Source: Streptomyces hydrogenans
GTDB taxonomy: Bacteria > Actinomycetota > Actinomycetes > Streptomycetales > Streptomycetaceae
DNA: 64,000 nucleotides
Direction: 5' to 3'
NCBI RefSeq assembly: GCF_014656075.1
Contig: NZ_BNBS01000001.1
Location: forward strand, 227,028-291,027
Position 1 is the first letter of the stretch. Each line of letters opens with the position of its first letter. Below are positions 3,372 through 51,109 of this stretch, in pieces. The notes beneath the pieces are model-generated. The model had not been told where the DNA came from, did no database searches, and saw only the letters and a list, made by a program, of their open reading frames with translations. A program made the translations under genes and the position numbers.

Positions 3372-5408
3372 ATGCTTCCCATCAGCCGCAGAGGGTTCGT
3401 CGGGATCGGCGCGGGGCTCGGTGCCGGACTCGTCACGGGGGCCGGACTGCCCCCGGCGACGGCCTCGGCCGCCGCGCGGGCCGCGACCGGCACCCTGACC
3501 GACGTCCGGCACGTGGTGATCCTGATGCAGGAGAACCGCAGCTTCGACCACTACTTCGGCACGCTCCGCGGCGTGCGCGGCTTCGGCGACCGGGCGGCGG
3601 GAAACATCCCCGGCGGCTGGGGCACCTTCCAGCAGCCGAACTGGGGCGGCCGGCAGTTCCCGTGGAAGCTGAGCGACACGCCGCCGGCCGGCGGGGTCGA
3701 CGGCGAGACGCTCGCCCAGTGCAACGGCGACCTGCCGCACAGCTGGACCTCGCAGCACTCCGCGTGGAACAAGGGCCGGCTCGACAACTGGGTGACGGGC
3801 GTGGGCAACACCCGCACGCTCGGCCACCTGGACCGCGAGGACATCCCCTTCCACCACGCGCTCGCCGATCACTACACGGTCTGCGACGCGTACTTCTGCT
3901 CGGCGCTCAGCGCCACCGGCCCCAACCGCACCTTCCTGTGGAGCGGGAAGATCGACGGCTCCAGCAAGGACGGCGGCGACGAGTCGGGCCTGACCTGGGA
4001 GACGTACGCGGAGGCGCTGCAGCGGGCCGGGGTGAGCTGGAAGGTCTACCAGAACGCCCAGGACAACTACGGCGACAACGGCCTCGCGTACTTCAAGAGG
4101 TTCACCGACGCCCGGCCCGGCGACCCGCTGTACGACCGGGGCATGGCCTCGGTCCCGAAGGTCACCGGCTCGACCCCGGACGACATCGCCGCCGCGATCC
4201 GCGCCGACGTCGTCGCCGGGACGCTGCCGCAGGTGTCGTGGGTGGTGGCGAACGAGGCGTTCTCCGAGCACCCGTACGCCCCTCCCGGCGACGGCGCCCA
4301 CTTCGTCGACCTGGTCTACCGCGCCCTGACGGCGAACCCCGAGGTCTTCGACTCGACCGTGATGATCCTCAACTACGACGAGAACGACGGCTTCTTCGAC
4401 CACGTGCCACCGCCCGTCGCCCCGCCCGGCACCCCCGGCGAGTACCTCGACGGCGCGCCGATCGGCCTCGGCTTCCGGGTCCCCATGCTGGTCATGTCCC
4501 CGTGGACGCGCGGCGGCTGGGTCAGCTCGGAGGTCTTCGACCACACCTCGGTCCTGCGCTTCCTGGAGACCTGGACCGCCGCCCTCGGCACCCCGGCGGC
4601 CTGCCCGAACATCAGCGCCTGGCGGCGGAGGGTGACCGGCGACCTCACCGGCGTCTTCGACTTCGCCCGCCCGGTGTACGGGGTCCCCGCCGGCCTCCCG
4701 TCGACGGCGAAGGTCATCGGCATGTCCACCTGCGGCCCGCTTCCCAACCCCGCGCCGCAGAACAACGCGCTGCCCGCCCAGGAGCCCGGCAACCGCCCGG
4801 CGCGGGCCCTGCCCTACCAGCCGAACGGCAACCTCGACCGCTTCGAGTTCGGGGCGGCGGGCAAGATCCTCGCCTGGTTCTCCATGACCAACGAGGGCCC
4901 GCAGGCCCGACGGGCCGCCCACTTCTCGATCCACCCGCACCAGTACCGCGACACCGCCGCCTGGCAGTACACGGTCGATCCCGGCACCACCGCCACCGAC
5001 TACTTCAACATCGGCCTCGGCTCCGGCTCGGGGAAGTACGACCTCTCGATGATGGGCCCGAACCGCTTCCTGCGCCGGTTCATCGGCGACGCCTCCAAGG
5101 CCGGCAGGGCGATCGAGGCGGCGGCCCGCTTCGCCGTCGAACCGGGCACCGGGAAGACGGCGATCTGGTTCCGGCTCACCAACACCTCGGCCGGCCCGGT
5201 CACCTTCACGATCCGCTCCAACGCCTACCGCGCGGACGGCCCGTGGACCTACACCGTCCCGGCGAACTCCACGCGCGAGGACCACTTCAACGCGGTGGCG
5301 TACCAGGACGGCTGGTACGACTTCACCGTCCTGGCGGACATCGACGGCACCTGGTCGCGCCGCTACACCGGCCACATCGAGACGGGGGCGCCGAGCGTCA
5401 CCGGCTGA
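3372..5408 (+). CDS. Secreted phosphocholine-type phospholipase C (non-haemolytic PLC family)
   Basis: The 678-aa protein belongs to the bacterial phosphatidylcholine-hydrolysing phospholipase C/acid phosphatase superfamily. It starts with a twin-arginine signal (ISRRGFVGIGAGLG). The catalytic domain has the metal/nucleophile motif MQENRSFDHYFGT near residue 52, HYTVCDAYFCS near 172 and NYDENDGFFDHVPPP near 333. Two C-terminal beta-sandwich repeats (DUF756, about 480-570 and 590-675) share F..TN. and W.YTV elements, as in Pseudomonas PlcH/PlcN. It would act outside the cell to release phosphate-containing head groups. The start is chosen because the Tat signal begins at once after an AGGAGGGGCGGGGC ribosome binding site. 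Confidence 0.92.
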   Translation: MLPISRRGFVGIGAGLGAGLVTGAGLPPATASAAARAATGTLTDVRHVVILMQENRSFDHYFGTLRGVRGFGDRAAGNIPGGWGTFQQPNWGGRQFPWKLSDTPPAGGVDGETLAQCNGDLPHSWTSQHSAWNKGRLDNWVTGVGNTRTLGHLDREDIPFHHALADHYTVCDAYFCSALSATGPNRTFLWSGKIDGSSKDGGDESGLTWETYAEALQRAGVSWKVYQNAQDNYGDNGLAYFKRFTDARPGDPLYDRGMASVPKVTGSTPDDIAAAIRADVVAGTLPQVSWVVANEAFSEHPYAPPGDGAHFVDLVYRALTANPEVFDSTVMILNYDENDGFFDHVPPPVAPPGTPGEYLDGAPIGLGFRVPMLVMSPWTRGGWVSSEVFDHTSVLRFLETWTAALGTPAACPNISAWRRRVTGDLTGVFDFARPVYGVPAGLPSTAKVIGMSTCGPLPNPAPQNNALPAQEPGNRPARALPYQPNGNLDRFEFGAAGKILAWFSMTNEGPQARRAAHFSIHPHQYRDTAAWQYTVDPGTTATDYFNIGLGSGSGKYDLSMMGPNRFLRRFIGDASKAGRAIEAAARFAVEPGTGKTAIWFRLTNTSAGPVTFTIRSNAYRADGPWTYTVPANSTREDHFNAVAYQDGWYDFTVLADIDGTWSRRYTGHIETGAPSVTG

Positions 5409-6361: not shown

Positions 6362-6535
6362 GCGGATCGCCGAATCCTGCCACCGCTCGAAAGACCTCCC
6401 ATTTCACCCGACGGCAGGAGCGGGGGACCCACCACACCGCCGGTCCGGCCCTGCCGGAACGGCTCGGGGTGAAGCCGCGTGCGCGCGGCCGGACAGCTCC
6501 AGTCCGAACCCGACAGCTCACTTCGCAGGCGCCGG
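6362..6535 (+). ncRNA. Cyclic di-AMP (ydaO/yuaA) riboswitch
   Basis: Hallmarks of the class appear in order: ATCGCCGAATCCTGCC at 6366, GGCAGGAGCGGGGGACCCA at 6413, GGGGTGAAGCC at 6466, GACAGCTC at 6492, CCGAACCCGACAGCTCACTT at 6504 and TTCGCAGGCG just before the ribosome binding site. In actinomycetes this riboswitch sits ahead of cell-wall hydrolase and Rpf-type genes and turns them off when c-di-AMP is high. Here it leads straight into a LysM/transglycosylase gene, as expected. The outer boundaries are approximate. Confidence 0.9.
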
Positions 6536-6548
6536 AGAGGAAACCGTC

Positions 6549-48528: not shown

Positions 48529-48903
48529 TCAGCGGGGTGCGAGGAGCAACCGCGCCTCGGTCTCCTGGTCGCCCGAGACCGCCTGGATCGACTCGATGTC
48601 GAAGCCCGCGGCGAGCACCTTCTCGACCTCACCGACTGCGTGGTAGCCGCCGGTCAGCGTCGCGACGACCTTGCCGGAGAGCGCGGGGGGAGACACCTCC
48701 TCGCGTCGGCCGCCCGAGGTGTCGAAGGTCGCCATCCACACGGTGGTGACGGGCGCCGTACCCGCCGGGGCGGGAGCTTCCACGTCCTCCAGCACGTAGT
48801 AGTGGTCGAGGACCCCGAAGACGGCGCGGGCGTCCTCCTGGCGGCAGTCGCTCAGCTGAACGTTGACGTCGGTGTCGATGTTCAAGTCGTACACGTCCCT
48901 CAT
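48529..48903 (-). CDS. Hypothetical protein, 124 aa
   Basis: A codon-typical reading frame (MRDVYDLNIDTDVNVQLSD) with DARAVFGVLDHYYVLEDVEAP, a Pro/Ala loop, and VVATLTGGYHAVGEVEKVLAAGFDIESIQAV. It has no signal, membrane segment or recognised domain; the alternation of strands and helices suggests a small alpha/beta fold. It ends near a strong terminator and has a GAGATGAGGGACG start context. Function unknown. Confidence 0.7.
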   Translation of the reverse strand: MRDVYDLNIDTDVNVQLSDCRQEDARAVFGVLDHYYVLEDVEAPAPAGTAPVTTVWMATFDTSGGRREEVSPPALSGKVVATLTGGYHAVGEVEKVLAAGFDIESIQAVSGDQETEARLLLAPR

Positions 48904-49308: not shown

Positions 49309-50040
49309 ATGCCCAAGTTGAACCAGATCGTCGCAGTCGAGAAGGGCCTGAAGTCTCGGACGGCAACGGCGGTGACCAAGATCTACCACGACCTCCAGAA
49401 GCCCGCCCTGTTCGCCGGCCTGAGCCGCAAGTACACCCCGATCGACGACGACGGCGAGAAGTTCCCGCCGGAGTCGACCCTCGTCCAGAAGAACGTGGAC
49501 GAGTCTCTGCGTACCGCGGCCAGCGAGCTGACGCAGCTGTTCGACACCGTGGCGACGAAGGAGGAGGGGAACCGGCACGCAACCGCCGACGTGGTCGTGG
49601 ACGGCACCGTCGTCGTCCCTGGCGCGTCGGTGCCGCTGCTGCTCTTCCTGGAGAAGCAGCTGGCCGATATCCGCACGGTCATCAGCAAGGTCCCGACGCT
49701 CGACCCGTCCGAGTCCTGGAGTCCCGACGACACCTCCGGCGGTCACCGTACGGAGCCCGTCCAGACGACGCGGACGCGGAAGGTGCCCAGGACGCTCGTC
49801 AAGTACGAGGCGACCGAGAGGCACCCCGCCCAGACCGAGGTCTACATGGTCGACGAGATGGTCGGCCACTGGGCGACGACGAAGTTCTCCGGCGCCCTGT
49901 CCCCGGCCCGCCGCGACGTGCTCGCCGCCCGTGTCGACGCCCTGTCGGACGCCGTGAAGAAGGCGCGGGAAGAGGCCAACAGCACCGAGGTGAACCAGGT
50001 GCACGTGGGAGAGGCCGTTTTCCAGTACCTCCTTCGATAA
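49309..50040 (+). CDS. DUF7873-family actinophage protein
   Basis: The 243-aa protein starts MPKLNQIVAVEKGLKSR and contains PPESTLVQKNVDESLR, DTVATKEEGNRHATADVVVDG, VPLLLFLEKQLADIRTVISKVPTLDPSESW, EPVQTTRTRKVPRTLVKYEATERHPAQ and SGALSPARRDVLAARVD. This is the conserved pattern of a protein found in many Streptomyces and Arthrobacter phages (DUF7873). Its role is unknown; it is largely helical and cytosolic. The ribosome binding site is GAGAGGATCCCGCG. It is the first phage gene after the junction and is followed by the tRNA block. Confidence 0.88.
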   Translation: MPKLNQIVAVEKGLKSRTATAVTKIYHDLQKPALFAGLSRKYTPIDDDGEKFPPESTLVQKNVDESLRTAASELTQLFDTVATKEEGNRHATADVVVDGTVVVPGASVPLLLFLEKQLADIRTVISKVPTLDPSESWSPDDTSGGHRTEPVQTTRTRKVPRTLVKYEATERHPAQTEVYMVDEMVGHWATTKFSGALSPARRDVLAARVDALSDAVKKAREEANSTEVNQVHVGEAVFQYLLR

Positions 50041-50046
50041 CAGACT

Positions 50047-50084
50047 CCCGGGTTGAGCGCCCGGGTGGCCCCTTTGGTGGGGCC
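50047..50084 (+). terminator. Tandem hairpins after the DUF7873 gene
   Basis: CCCGGG (50047) pairs with CCCGGG (50060) across a 7-nt loop, and GGCCCC (50067) pairs with GGGGCC (50079) around TTTGGT. They may end the upstream transcript or fold as part of the leader of the tRNA region. The second copy of GCCCGGG here competes with the tRNA acceptor strand described next. Confidence 0.4.
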
Positions 50085-50112: not shown

Positions 50113-50193
50113 GATGCAAGGTGACAGTGCAGGTTCGCTCCCTGCCCCGGGCATTCCGCGCCCGGGTAGCCCAACTGGTAGAGGCAGCCTTGT
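50113..50193 (+). tRNA. Candidate circularly permuted tRNA (3' half first), anticodon GAU if joined as described
   Basis: The 3' half comes first: loop piece GATGC (50113), anticodon-stem 3' strand AAGGT (50118), 6-nt variable loop, T-arm GCAGG-TTCGCTC-CCTGC (50129-50145), acceptor CCCGGGC (50146) and discriminator A. After only 6 nt (TTCCGC) comes the 5' half: acceptor GCCCGGG (50160), T8-A9, D-arm GCC...GGC with a GG-containing loop, A26 and anticodon-stem 5' strand GCCTT (50187) then GT. All helices pair in this order. Joining ...GT to GATGC gives a 7-nt loop with U33 and anticodon GAU. A rival conventional reading uses the other GCCCGGG at 50059, but it needs extra bases between the D and anticodon arms. 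Confidence 0.5.
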
Positions 50194-50264
50194 GATTCAG
50201 ACTCAGATTCTCGCTCCAGTTTCAGCAAATCCGCCGTTCTCCTGATCCCTCCGGCGAGGAAAGT

Positions 50265-50344
50265 AACCGAGAGATGCCAGTTCGATTCTGGCTCGCGGCA
50301 CTCGGGCCGCGATGGCTGTAAAGGCAACAGCGCTCGGTCTTGAA
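50265..50344 (+). tRNA. Circularly permuted tRNA gene (3' half upstream of 5' half), anticodon UGA
   Basis: The 3' half is anticodon-stem 3' strand ACCGAG (50266), variable AGAT, T-arm GCCAG-TTCGATT-CTGGC (50276-50292), acceptor TCGCGGC (50293-50299), discriminator A. A 5-nt linker CTCGG follows, then the 5' half: acceptor GCCGCGA (50306-50312), T8-G9, D-arm GCTG-TAAAGGCAA-CAGC, and anticodon-stem 5' strand CTCGGT with CTTGAA. All four stems pair without mismatch, and no complementary acceptor strand exists upstream, so a conventional reading is not possible. Leader GGCGAG (50253) can also pair with trailer CTCGCC (50352), closing an extended helix around the ends. The joined loop would be CTTGAAA. 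Confidence 0.65.
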
Positions 50345-50374
50345 TCTGAAACTCGCCCAACCGTGCAGGAGACC

Positions 50375-50457
50375 TGAGTGGAACCCAGTGATAGGGCAAC
50401 TGGCAGCCCAACTGTCTTAGGAACAGTAGATTGCGGGTTCAAATCCCGCTCACTCAA
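50375..50457 (+). tRNA. tRNA with Leu anticodon UAG; 10-nt insertion in the 5' acceptor strand
   Basis: The body is good: D-arm GGGC-AACTGGCA-GCCC, anticodon arm ACTGT-CTTAGGA-ACAGT (UAG), short 5-nt variable loop, T-arm GCGGG-TTCAAAT-CCCGC, acceptor 3' strand TCACTCA and discriminator A457. The 5' strand needed is TGAGTGA. The sequence has TGA, ten extra bases (GTGGAACCCA), then GTGA directly before T8-A9, so either the gene starts at 50385 with two mismatches or it contains an insertion flanked by GTG repeats. A short variable loop is not normal for a leucine tRNA. Confidence 0.6.
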
Positions 50458-50998: not shown

Positions 50999-51073
50999 GC
51001 GCTGCTGAAGGGAACTGGCATACCTCGCTGCCTCAAAAGCAGTGGATTCCCGGTTCGAATCCGGGGCGGCGCA
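50999..51073 (+). tRNA. tRNA with Leu anticodon CAA
   Basis: A conventional cloverleaf: acceptor GCGCTGC/GCGGCGC (one G-U), T8, D-arm AGG-...ACTGG...-CCT, anticodon arm GCTGC-CTCAAAA-GCAGT (CAA), 5-nt variable loop GGATT, T-arm CCCGG-TTCGAAT-CCGGG and discriminator A73. CAA would read UUG leucine codons, rare in this GC-rich host. A short variable loop is again unusual for tRNA-Leu. CCA is not encoded. Confidence 0.75.
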
Positions 51074-51109
51074 CTCCACACCCCACCCCCATCGAAGGGA
51101 CGTACGACC

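What the first reader, a model, noticed from the sequence alone, without database searches (positions are those of the whole stretch)
50253..50357. A phage tRNA gene that is circularly permuted (3' half before 5' half)
The T-arm half with acceptor TCGCGGC and discriminator A lies upstream of the half with acceptor GCCGCGA, D-arm and anticodon-stem 5' strand, separated by 5 nt. Acceptor (7 bp), D (4 bp), anticodon (5-6 bp) and T (5 bp) stems all pair without mismatch only in the permuted order, and no alternative GCCGCGA exists upstream. The flanking leader GGCGAG and trailer CTCGCC also pair, which would hold the ends together for cleavage and joining. Permuted tRNA genes are known from some algae and archaea, where a splicing endonuclease acts on a bulge-helix-bulge; an equivalent in a phage of a bacterium would need another processing route.
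Basis: partly seen in the sequence, partly recalled or inferred. Interest (0 to 1): 0.93.

Follow-up and report, generated by a model that had tools for sequence, protein, structure and literature searches.

The report
Two-headed tRNA-mimic RNA beside DUF7873
Next to an uncharacterised gene in this prophage-like region lies a conserved structured element with two tRNA shapes written back to front; it recurs beside the same gene in many phages and bacterial chromosomes and is predicted to be a non-coding RNA that likely imitates tRNA on a new protein partner rather than serving as a tRNA.

Summary
A second permuted unit lies upstream (50118-50191), and both follow a DUF7873 gene (49309-50040). 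The cassette recurs: 94 of 104 non-redundant DUF7873 loci have one or two units within 500 nt, against 1 of 1060 shuffles. Every acceptor pair shows changes on both sides. A covariance model of unit 2 plus its basal stem has its top-class hits (55.7 bits or more) beside DUF7873 in 75 of 75 carrier genomes and in none of the 46 others of that search. It is not a tRNA gene: the anticodon loop is replaced by a long basal stem. The layout is that of YrlA, the bacterial Y RNA that mimics tRNA. The model's tRNA-like core also hits beside TROVE (Ro60) genes, where the basal stem differs; DUF7873-linked RNAs have their own conserved internal loop. I read it as a Y-RNA-type tRNA mimic with two heads and a DUF7873 handle in place of Ro60. 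Transcription, protein binding and function are untested, and DUF7873 has no recognised fold. New variant of a known kind.

The parts
49309..50040 (+). DUF7873 gene (243 aa, MPKLNQ...), candidate partner protein; the mechanical ORF starts earlier, at 48640
   Evidence: Pfam PF25283, 327 bits, E 9e-98, on residues 224-465 of the long ORF; homologues start at the equivalent M
50118..50191 (+). Unit 1, permuted tRNA-like module: anticodon-like stem 50118-50122/50187-50191 (one G-U), T arm 50129-50145, acceptor 50146-50152/50160-50166, D arm 50169-50185 (3 bp)
   Evidence: unit finder, alignment A3 and its covariation, R1 core hit 50125-50187 at 32.2 bits
50239..50371 (+). Basal helix Pa closing unit 2: 50239-50244 (CTCCTG) with 50366-50371 (CAGGAG)
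   Evidence: fold; Pa 94.1% of cells paired, all 6 pairs with changes on both sides in A5
50245..50249 (+). 5' side of the conserved internal loop (AUCGA in relatives; AUCCC here)
   Evidence: A5 columns, motif counts
50358..50365 (+). 3' side of the conserved internal loop (UUAAACGUG in relatives; diverged CAACCGUG here)
   Evidence: A5 columns, motif counts
50253..50357 (+).
   Evidence: fold; Pb 88.5% of cells paired, changes on both sides at all 9 pairs in A5
50267..50337 (+). Unit 2, permuted tRNA-like module: anticodon-like stem 50267-50271/50333-50337, T arm 50276-50292, acceptor 50293-50299/50306-50312, D arm 50315-50331
   Evidence: R1 hit 50234-50376 at 88.6 bits, E 4e-18 (the window is one of the 31 rows of the model)
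50385..50457 (+). Ordinary tRNA-Leu gene directly downstream (not part of the element)
   Evidence: ARAGORN and Rfam, 56.9 bits

Best explanation
The element is the second of two permuted tRNA-like modules in a conserved structured region directly downstream of a DUF7873 gene, predicted to be transcribed as one non-coding RNA of the bacterial Y RNA (YrlA) type that likely binds the DUF7873 protein instead of Ro60. Shown: two modules; permuted order with covarying T, acceptor, D and anticodon-like stems; basal helices Pa and Pb enclosing a conserved internal loop; close co-location with DUF7873; the same tRNA-like core beside TROVE/Ro60 genes, where the flanking basal sequence is different. Inferred: the Pa/Pb stem with its AUCGA/UUAAACG loop is the handle gripped by DUF7873. 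The two tRNA-shaped heads would recruit enzymes that recognise tRNA, most likely PNPase or another RNase as in the Ro60-YrlA-PNPase complex, steering that enzyme toward chosen RNAs. In phages the same heads could also occupy enzymes that attack tRNA during infection.
For: Unit finder: 94 of 104 non-redundant DUF7873 loci have at least one unit (55 two, 39 one), against 0 of 106 reverse complements and 1 of 1060 dinucleotide shuffles. Covariation: unit 1, 48 sequences, 181 both-side-changed cells against a shuffled mean of 57.5 (0 of 500); unit 2, 36 sequences, 174 against 54.1 (0 of 500); unit 2 with Pa and Pb, 31 sequences, 237 against 72.3 (0 of 500), 88.8% of cells paired against 38.9-48.9% in slid controls. 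Anticodon-like stem, not used for selection: 5 of 5 pairs in 36 of 57 (unit 1) and 39 of 57 (unit 2) against means of 6.9 and 7.1 with shuffled partners. Model R1: in 121 genomes the hits of 55.7 bits or more are one in each of the 75 DUF7873-positive genomes, same strand, beside the gene; 64 of 68 DUF7873 loci, 67 of them not used to build the model though a few are near-copies of each other, have a hit at E under 0.01 within 900 nt. YrlA model: E 0.01 or better in 8 of 14 relatives tested, best 49.6 bits. R1 core hits lie 0.9-1.2 kb from TROVE matches in 6 genomes. YrlA scores at TROVE loci (24-43 bits in 7 of 12 loci) are no higher than at DUF7873 loci. Handle, same patterns and windows on both sides: 5' motif plus UUAAAYG in 38 of 57 DUF7873-linked unit 2 (47 of 57 with a looser 3' pattern), 0 of 15 TROVE-linked units. 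No TROVE match in the window's genome or in 20 of 24 DUF7873-bearing phage records. YrlA biology from passages of PMC8394870 and PMC7790460.
Against: No transcript, protein binding or phenotype was tested. DUF7873 has no recognised fold, so RNA binding by it rests on gene neighbourhood alone. YrlA scores never reach Rfam's gathering score of 69; the window's unit 1 scores 20.7 bits and its unit 2 is not in the E 5 list. The window's loop motifs have diverged. The strongest R1 hit outside DUF7873 loci, 55.0 bits beside a TROVE gene (G047), is almost as high as the weakest DUF7873 hit, 55.7. Unit 1 shows no conserved distal helix (20 of 57 against 21.3 in shuffles) and lacks the loop motifs (0 of 57 strict), so the heads are not equivalent. 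NCCA follows the acceptor in 24 of 55 and 12 of 55 units, which a purely closed mimic does not need. Four of 68 loci (L044, L054, L140, L142) gave no R1 hit in the expected place. DUF7873 is rare in the wider phylum: 6 of 296 genomes, all of the window's genus. One R1 core hit (G055, beside a lysX-like gene) is near neither DUF7873 nor TROVE, so such heads exist outside both systems.
Confidence: 0.68

Rival explanations
1. A genuine circularly permuted tRNA gene whose transcript is circularised or joined and cut to give a decoding tRNA.
For: All four tRNA stems pair and covary in the permuted order; NCCA follows the acceptor in 24 of 55 unit 1 and 12 of 55 unit 2.
Against: No 7-nt anticodon loop; the anticodon-like stem of unit 2 runs into conserved helices Pb and Pa, which an excised tRNA would not need. 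Two different modules occur in tandem, usually 140-150 nt apart. The same core occurs beside TROVE genes.
Confidence: 0.04
2. Split-RNA processing as in permuted tmRNA: RNase P and 3' trimming open the acceptor linkers, leaving two- or three-piece RNAs with mature tRNA-like acceptor ends held by base pairing.
For: Same gene topology as permuted tmRNA (described in passages of PMC10085705); Rfam beta_tmRNA picks up the core weakly in 3 of 14 loci. NCCA is far above the 1 in 64 expected by chance; linkers range from 4 to 89 nt.
Against: The commonest linker is only 7 nt; 31 of 55 unit 1 and 43 of 55 unit 2 have no encoded CCA; Y RNA relatives keep the acceptor closed (recalled from the YrlA structure paper; not read).
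Confidence: 0.15
3. The RNA is a Ro60 client: it works in trans with a TROVE protein elsewhere in the cell, and DUF7873 is a bystander or regulator.
For: TROVE and DUF7873 matches co-occur in 50 of 121 genomes, somewhat more than the 42.8 expected from 69 and 75 if independent (my arithmetic).
Against: 25 of 121 genomes, the window's own among them, have DUF7873 and no TROVE match; 20 of 24 phage records have no TROVE match; the basal stem differs from that of TROVE-linked Y RNAs; the RNA tracks DUF7873 in 75 of 75 genomes.
Confidence: 0.1
4. A decoy that occupies anticodon nucleases or other tRNA-attacking defence enzymes, so that real tRNAs survive.
For: The cassette sits in the tRNA clusters of several phages; competitive inhibition of a nuclease by YrlA's tRNA-like domain has been proposed (PMC7790460, passage read).
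Against: There is no anticodon loop to be recognised; the cassette is also in 75 of 121 bacterial genomes sampled, where a phage decoy is not obviously needed; a decoy needs no conserved basal loop or protein.
Confidence: 0.18
5. Artefact: chance folding, or a relic of tandem tRNA genes whose adjoining halves mimic a permuted tRNA.
For: Tandem tRNA genes do produce such hits: the 44.2-bit R1 hit on contig C30 of the window's genome is a tandem tRNA-Asn pair.
Against: The halves here belong to no complete tRNA: ARAGORN finds only the separate tRNA-Leu genes downstream in the window and none in the 18 kb around the relative L182. Covariation and conserved helices beyond the tRNA part; 1 of 1060 shuffles.
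Confidence: 0.01

Closest known systems
YrlA (Rfam RF02553), bacterial Y RNA that mimics tRNA, partner of Ro60/Rsr
   Same: T arm, acceptor hairpin and D arm in the same permuted order, on a long basal stem with an internal loop; the Rfam model matches positions 1-114 in relatives.
   Different: Two modules in tandem; linked to DUF7873, not TROVE; different basal-loop motif; below the Rfam gathering score.
Permuted (two-piece) tmRNA
   Same: 3' half before 5' half of the tRNA-like domain with a short intervening segment.
   Different: No tmRNA recognised by Rfam or ARAGORN here; two tRNA-like modules; basal helices Pa and Pb.
Circularly permuted tRNA genes of algae and archaea
   Same: Order of halves in the gene.
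   Different: No anticodon loop; conserved extra helices; nothing in the anatomy that points to a joined product.
GOLLD, ROOL and HEARO RNAs of phages
   Same: Large structured RNAs near phage tRNA clusters or beside one protein family (recalled for GOLLD and ROOL).
   Different: None matched at the window. Of 19 loci scanned at gathering score, HEARO appears only in L054.

Membership tests
YrlA-type bacterial Y RNA | tRNA-like domain in the order T arm, acceptor hairpin, D arm | tested here: met
YrlA-type bacterial Y RNA | Basal stem formed by the 5' and 3' parts, with an internal loop | tested here: met
   unit 2: Pa 94.1% and Pb 88.5% of cells paired, with covariation; not found for unit 1
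YrlA-type bacterial Y RNA | Encoded beside a Ro60/Rsr (TROVE) gene | tested here: not met
   The adjacent gene is DUF7873; no TROVE match in the window's genome at E 0.001 or better; 4 of 24 phage records have a TROVE match
YrlA-type bacterial Y RNA | Score at or above the Rfam gathering score (69 bits) | tested here: not met
   20.7 bits in the window, at most 49.6 in relatives. TROVE-linked loci also miss it (24-43 bits), so the test discriminates poorly here
YrlA-type bacterial Y RNA | Ro60-binding motif in the basal stem | tested here: inconclusive
   TROVE-linked units share their own flanking sequence and the DUF7873-linked loop is different, but the Ro60-binding bases are not known to me from a call
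YrlA-type bacterial Y RNA | Binds PNPase; carries dihydrouridine and pseudouridine | not testable with these tools
   T-loop TTCRANY and the D-loop GG are kept, but they were selection criteria of the finder
Circularly permuted tRNA gene | 7-nt anticodon loop with an anticodon after re-joining | tested here: not met
   large internal loop followed by Pb and Pa
Circularly permuted tRNA gene | Joined or circular transcript | not testable with these tools
   no RNA data
Permuted tmRNA | Recognisable tmRNA (tag reading frame, pseudoknots) | tested here: not met
   no tmRNA by ARAGORN or Rfam in the window
DUF7873 (PF25283) | Pfam curated cut-off | tested here: met
   327 bits against cut-off 27

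The most novel reading that the evidence does not exclude
A second, Ro60-independent Y-RNP system: DUF7873, a protein of unrecognised fold, carries a two-headed tRNA-mimic RNA through its own conserved handle. This would show that the tRNA-mimic Y RNA head is a portable effector module used with at least two unrelated protein platforms across phages and bacteria.
Probability: 0.5. Interest if true: 0.86.

Novelty: new variant of a known kind. Interest (0 to 1): 0.74.

Why it matters
Bacterial Y RNAs are described as partners of Ro60. A widespread class with the same tRNA-mimic head, doubled, and tied to a different protein would show that the head is modular and would give a testable role to a large orphan family: a search with one phage member returned 5541 proteins at E 0.001 or better. 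It also gives a ready set of phage and chromosomal loci for asking what the tRNA-mimic head recruits, and it warns that permuted-tRNA hits in genomes may be Y-RNA-type mimics or tandem-tRNA artefacts.

Tried and rejected
Conventional tRNA using another upstream 5' half: disfavoured, since the acceptors of unit 1 and unit 2 pair 7 of 7 in permuted order and covary in relatives. A class II tRNA-Ser with its 5' half near 50057 was considered by eye only and not tested separately.

Tandem-tRNA artefact: shown to exist (tandem tRNA-Asn in the window's genome); similar 127-nt hits recur in many genomes but only that one was opened. Excluded for this locus.

Distribution: DUF7873 in 6 of 296 genomes drawn across the phylum, all in the window's genus, and in 1 of 14 control genomes, so in bacteria it is concentrated, as far as sampled, in the window's family (75 of 121); one search lists further actinobacterial names.

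TROVE matches in the family's genomes cover only about 50-85 of 442 profile positions, so I call those genes Ro60 by Pfam label.

R1 core hits (about positions 34-116) outside DUF7873 loci: the cut list shows 9 in 8 genomes. Seven (6 genomes) lie within 1.2 kb of a TROVE match. The hit in G023 has the flanking sequence of TROVE-linked units, but that genome has no TROVE match. The hit in G055 lies beside a gene with LPG synthase and lysyl-tRNA-synthetase-like domains, with neither handle. These two were opened only on rechecking.

Distal helix for unit 1: no enrichment. MAFFT misregisters the anticodon-like stem because the variable region differs in length, so its alignment-based pairing is only 59-69%; the per-locus test allows several registers in loci and shuffles alike. 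In A3 the fourth D pair is unpaired in 47 of 48 rows.

3' hairpin with a GGATAYG-like loop after unit 2: 23 of 57 loci, 0 of 57 mononucleotide shuffles; that script did not find it in the window.

Motif counts used a looser 3' pattern for DUF7873 loci than for TROVE loci; one search repeats the count with equal patterns, and its numbers are the ones given.

Selection notes: the finder required T, acceptor and D pairing, so pairing percentages of those stems are biased upward; the anticodon-like stem, Pa and Pb were not selected. The controls used 106 loci that included up to 15 minus-strand loci not yet turned round (10 of them are in its list without a unit); one search corrected this to 104 loci. 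Control stretches: upstream 2 of 104, 500-1000 nt downstream 8 of 104 with a unit. A3 and A4 use 48 and 36 of 57 two-unit loci (linker 12 nt or less). A5 uses 31 of the 34 references printed, which had left out longer linkers and L038, L101, L113; I left out L073, L080 and L090. One search tested 14 loci and one search tested 12.

Literature: searches in open-licence PMC papers. DUF7873 is in none, and I saw no report of a permuted tRNA-like RNA beside it in the listings shown. Passages seen: PMC7790460, PMC8394870, PMC7824862, PMC9569102, PMC10085705, PMC8190616. The key YrlA paper (10.1261/rna.047241.114) is not held; its content and the YrlA crystal structure are recalled or second-hand.

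Full report
The window stretch 50234-50376 folds at -57.1 kcal/mol with these stems, and none of 200 dinucleotide-preserving shuffles is as stable; for 50240-50370 it was 4 of 200. Conventional tools see nothing there: ARAGORN and Rfam report a tRNA-Leu at 50385-50457 but no RNA at 50253-50357 at the gathering score.

The element is half of a larger thing. Directly upstream lies a second unit in the same permuted order: T arm 50129-50145, acceptor 50146-50152 with 50160-50166, D arm 50169-50185, anticodon-like stem 50118-50122 with 50187-50191. Both follow a gene whose product is DUF7873 (PF25283, 327 bits), which starts at 49309. Of the downstream genes scanned, several are phage-like (exonuclease, Band-7, Prim-Pol, polymerase exonuclease subunit, repressor), while the upstream genes scanned look chromosomal.

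The cassette is widespread in phages and common in the window's bacterial family. DUF7873 is found in 73 phage records of Vibrio, Gordonia, Rhizobium, Klebsiella, Serratia, Arthrobacter, two cyanobacterial genera and Rhodococcus, and 5541 proteins come up in a protein-level search. In the family of the window (unnamed here; the two closest named relatives, L035 and L036, are Streptomyces), 75 of 121 genomes have it. Across the phylum it is rare: 6 of 296 genomes, all in the window's genus. In the phage records opened, the DUF7873 gene is typically followed by a stretch of a few hundred bases with little or no annotation.

A strict finder of the permuted unit was run on the 500 nt after DUF7873. 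Of 104 non-redundant loci, 55 have two units, 39 one and 10 none. Controls, made on 106 loci before up to 15 were re-oriented: 0 of 106 reverse complements, 1 of 1060 shuffles, 2 of 104 upstream stretches, 8 of 104 stretches 500-1000 nt downstream. The spacing between the units is usually 140-150 nt (37 of 48). The 55 two-unit loci have 38 (unit 1) and 42 (unit 2) different acceptor 3' strands.

Covariation is strong. Unit 1 (48 sequences): 86.9% of cells paired against 66.5% in shuffles and 37.6-57.8% in slid controls, all seven acceptor pairs with changes on both sides. Unit 2 (36 sequences): 89.8% against 65.1% and 38.8-47.1%. These stems were used for picking the units, so their percentages are biased; the anticodon-like stem was not, and it pairs 5 of 5 in 36 of 57 and 39 of 57 loci against means of 6.9 and 7.1 with shuffled partners. 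Beyond it, unit 2 has a further helix of 7 bp or more in 49 of 57 loci against 18.1 in shuffles, whereas unit 1 does not (20 of 57 against 21.3). Alignment of unit 2 with its flanks (31 sequences) resolves two helices, Pb (88.5% of cells paired) and Pa (94.1%), with changes on both sides at every pair. Between them lies a conserved asymmetric internal loop, AUCGA on one side and UUAAACG on the other.

A covariance model (R1) of unit 2 with Pa and Pb was searched in the 121 genomes. The hits of 55.7 bits or more fall in exactly the 75 genomes with DUF7873, each on the same strand and 143-292 nt after the gene match; in G017 the DUF7873 match is short (profile positions 82-145) and the hit overlaps its end by 27 nt. 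The margin is thin at the bottom: the next hit, 55.0 bits in G047, lies beside a TROVE match. In 68 DUF7873 loci, only one of which (the window) was used for the model, 64 have a hit at E under 0.01 within 900 nt after the gene. The misses are L044, L054, L140 and L142.

Lesser classes of R1 hits are informative. A 127-nt hit of about 44-51 bits recurs in many genomes; the copy in the window's genome is a tandem pair of tRNA-Asn genes, a way to imitate a permuted tRNA and a useful warning. Hits to little more than the tRNA-like core appear nine times outside DUF7873 loci in the list, which is cut: seven, in six genomes, lie about 1 kb from a TROVE (Ro60) match; one (G023) has the same flanking sequence as those but no TROVE match in its genome; one (G055) lies beside a lysX-like gene and has neither handle. 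The Rfam Y RNA model YrlA matches TROVE loci at 24-43 bits in 7 of 12 and DUF7873-linked units at up to 49.6 bits, with E 0.01 or better in 8 of 14 loci. None of these reaches Rfam's 69-bit gathering score, on either side. YrlA is described as a modular RNA with a basal stem that binds Rsr/Ro60 and a tRNA-like domain resembling the D, T and acceptor arms that binds PNPase (passage of PMC8394870). The permuted order is therefore the normal layout of a known RNA.

What differs is the handle. With the same patterns and windows, the 5' motif plus UUAAAYG are found in 38 of 57 DUF7873-linked unit 2 and in 0 of 15 TROVE-linked units; with a looser 3' pattern 47 of 57 and 0 of 15. Unit 1 has none by the strict pattern. 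The window's genome has no TROVE match, 25 of 121 genomes have DUF7873 without a TROVE match, and 20 of 24 phage records with DUF7873 have none. The simplest reading is that a Y-RNA-type tRNA-mimic head, here doubled, is mounted on a different protein-binding stem whose partner is DUF7873.

How it likely works is inference: DUF7873 holds the RNA by the Pa/Pb loop, and the two heads bring in enzymes that recognise tRNA, PNPase being the precedent. A protective decoy role in infection is possible, and so is partial processing at the acceptor linkers, since NCCA follows the acceptor in 24 of 55 unit 1 and 12 of 55 unit 2. DUF7873 itself gives no hint: its predicted structure is confident but matches nothing convincingly.

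Verdict: observation confirmed and extended; the tRNA-gene interpretation is replaced by a Y-RNA-type tRNA mimic; new variant of a known kind, with the protein partnership the main open question.

Noticed in passing
   Followed up: partly
G000:C30:51559-51685 (L179): Tandem tRNA-Asn genes score 44.2 bits against the permuted model because the 3' half of one and the 5' half of the next imitate a permuted tRNA; a pitfall for permuted-tRNA searches.
   Followed up: yes
L052:3518-3597 (Klebsiella phage vB_KpM_FBKp24): Annotated tRNA-Sup-TTA lies in the gap after DUF7873 and overlaps the R1 hit at 3531-3693; probably a misannotation of the mimic region.
   Followed up: partly
L003:1054-1582 (Gordonia phage GodonK): Rfam finds a tmRNA (90 bits) spanning 529 nt where the record annotates only a tRNA-His at 1133-1194; the length suggests an insertion.
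   Followed up: no
L061-L063, L066, L068, L175, L177, L180, L181, L183: TROVE loci (and L183, without a TROVE match) carry one to three permuted tRNA-like Y RNA units, under Rfam's YrlA gathering score where cmscan was run; the Rfam model seems to miss this branch.
   Followed up: partly
after unit 2 in L002-L004, L039-L041 and others: A hairpin with a GGATAYG-like loop follows unit 2 in 23 of 57 loci; possibly the 3' end of the RNA.
   Followed up: partly
window 50999-51074: A second tRNA-Leu-like sequence found by ARAGORN scores 28.9 bits, just under Rfam's 29; possibly a decayed or odd tRNA.
   Followed up: no
window 6386-6546: c-di-AMP (ydaO/yuaA) riboswitch, 54 bits, in the chromosomal part of the window.
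   Followed up: no
L047 from about 4214: A gene whose start, read by eye, resembles a von Willebrand A domain (DGSGSMSG) follows the RNA; Ro60 also has such a domain (recalled).
   Followed up: no
L054:3450-3659 (Microcoleus phage My-WqHQDG): The gap after DUF7873 holds a HEARO RNA (129 bits) and no unit was found there.
   Followed up: no
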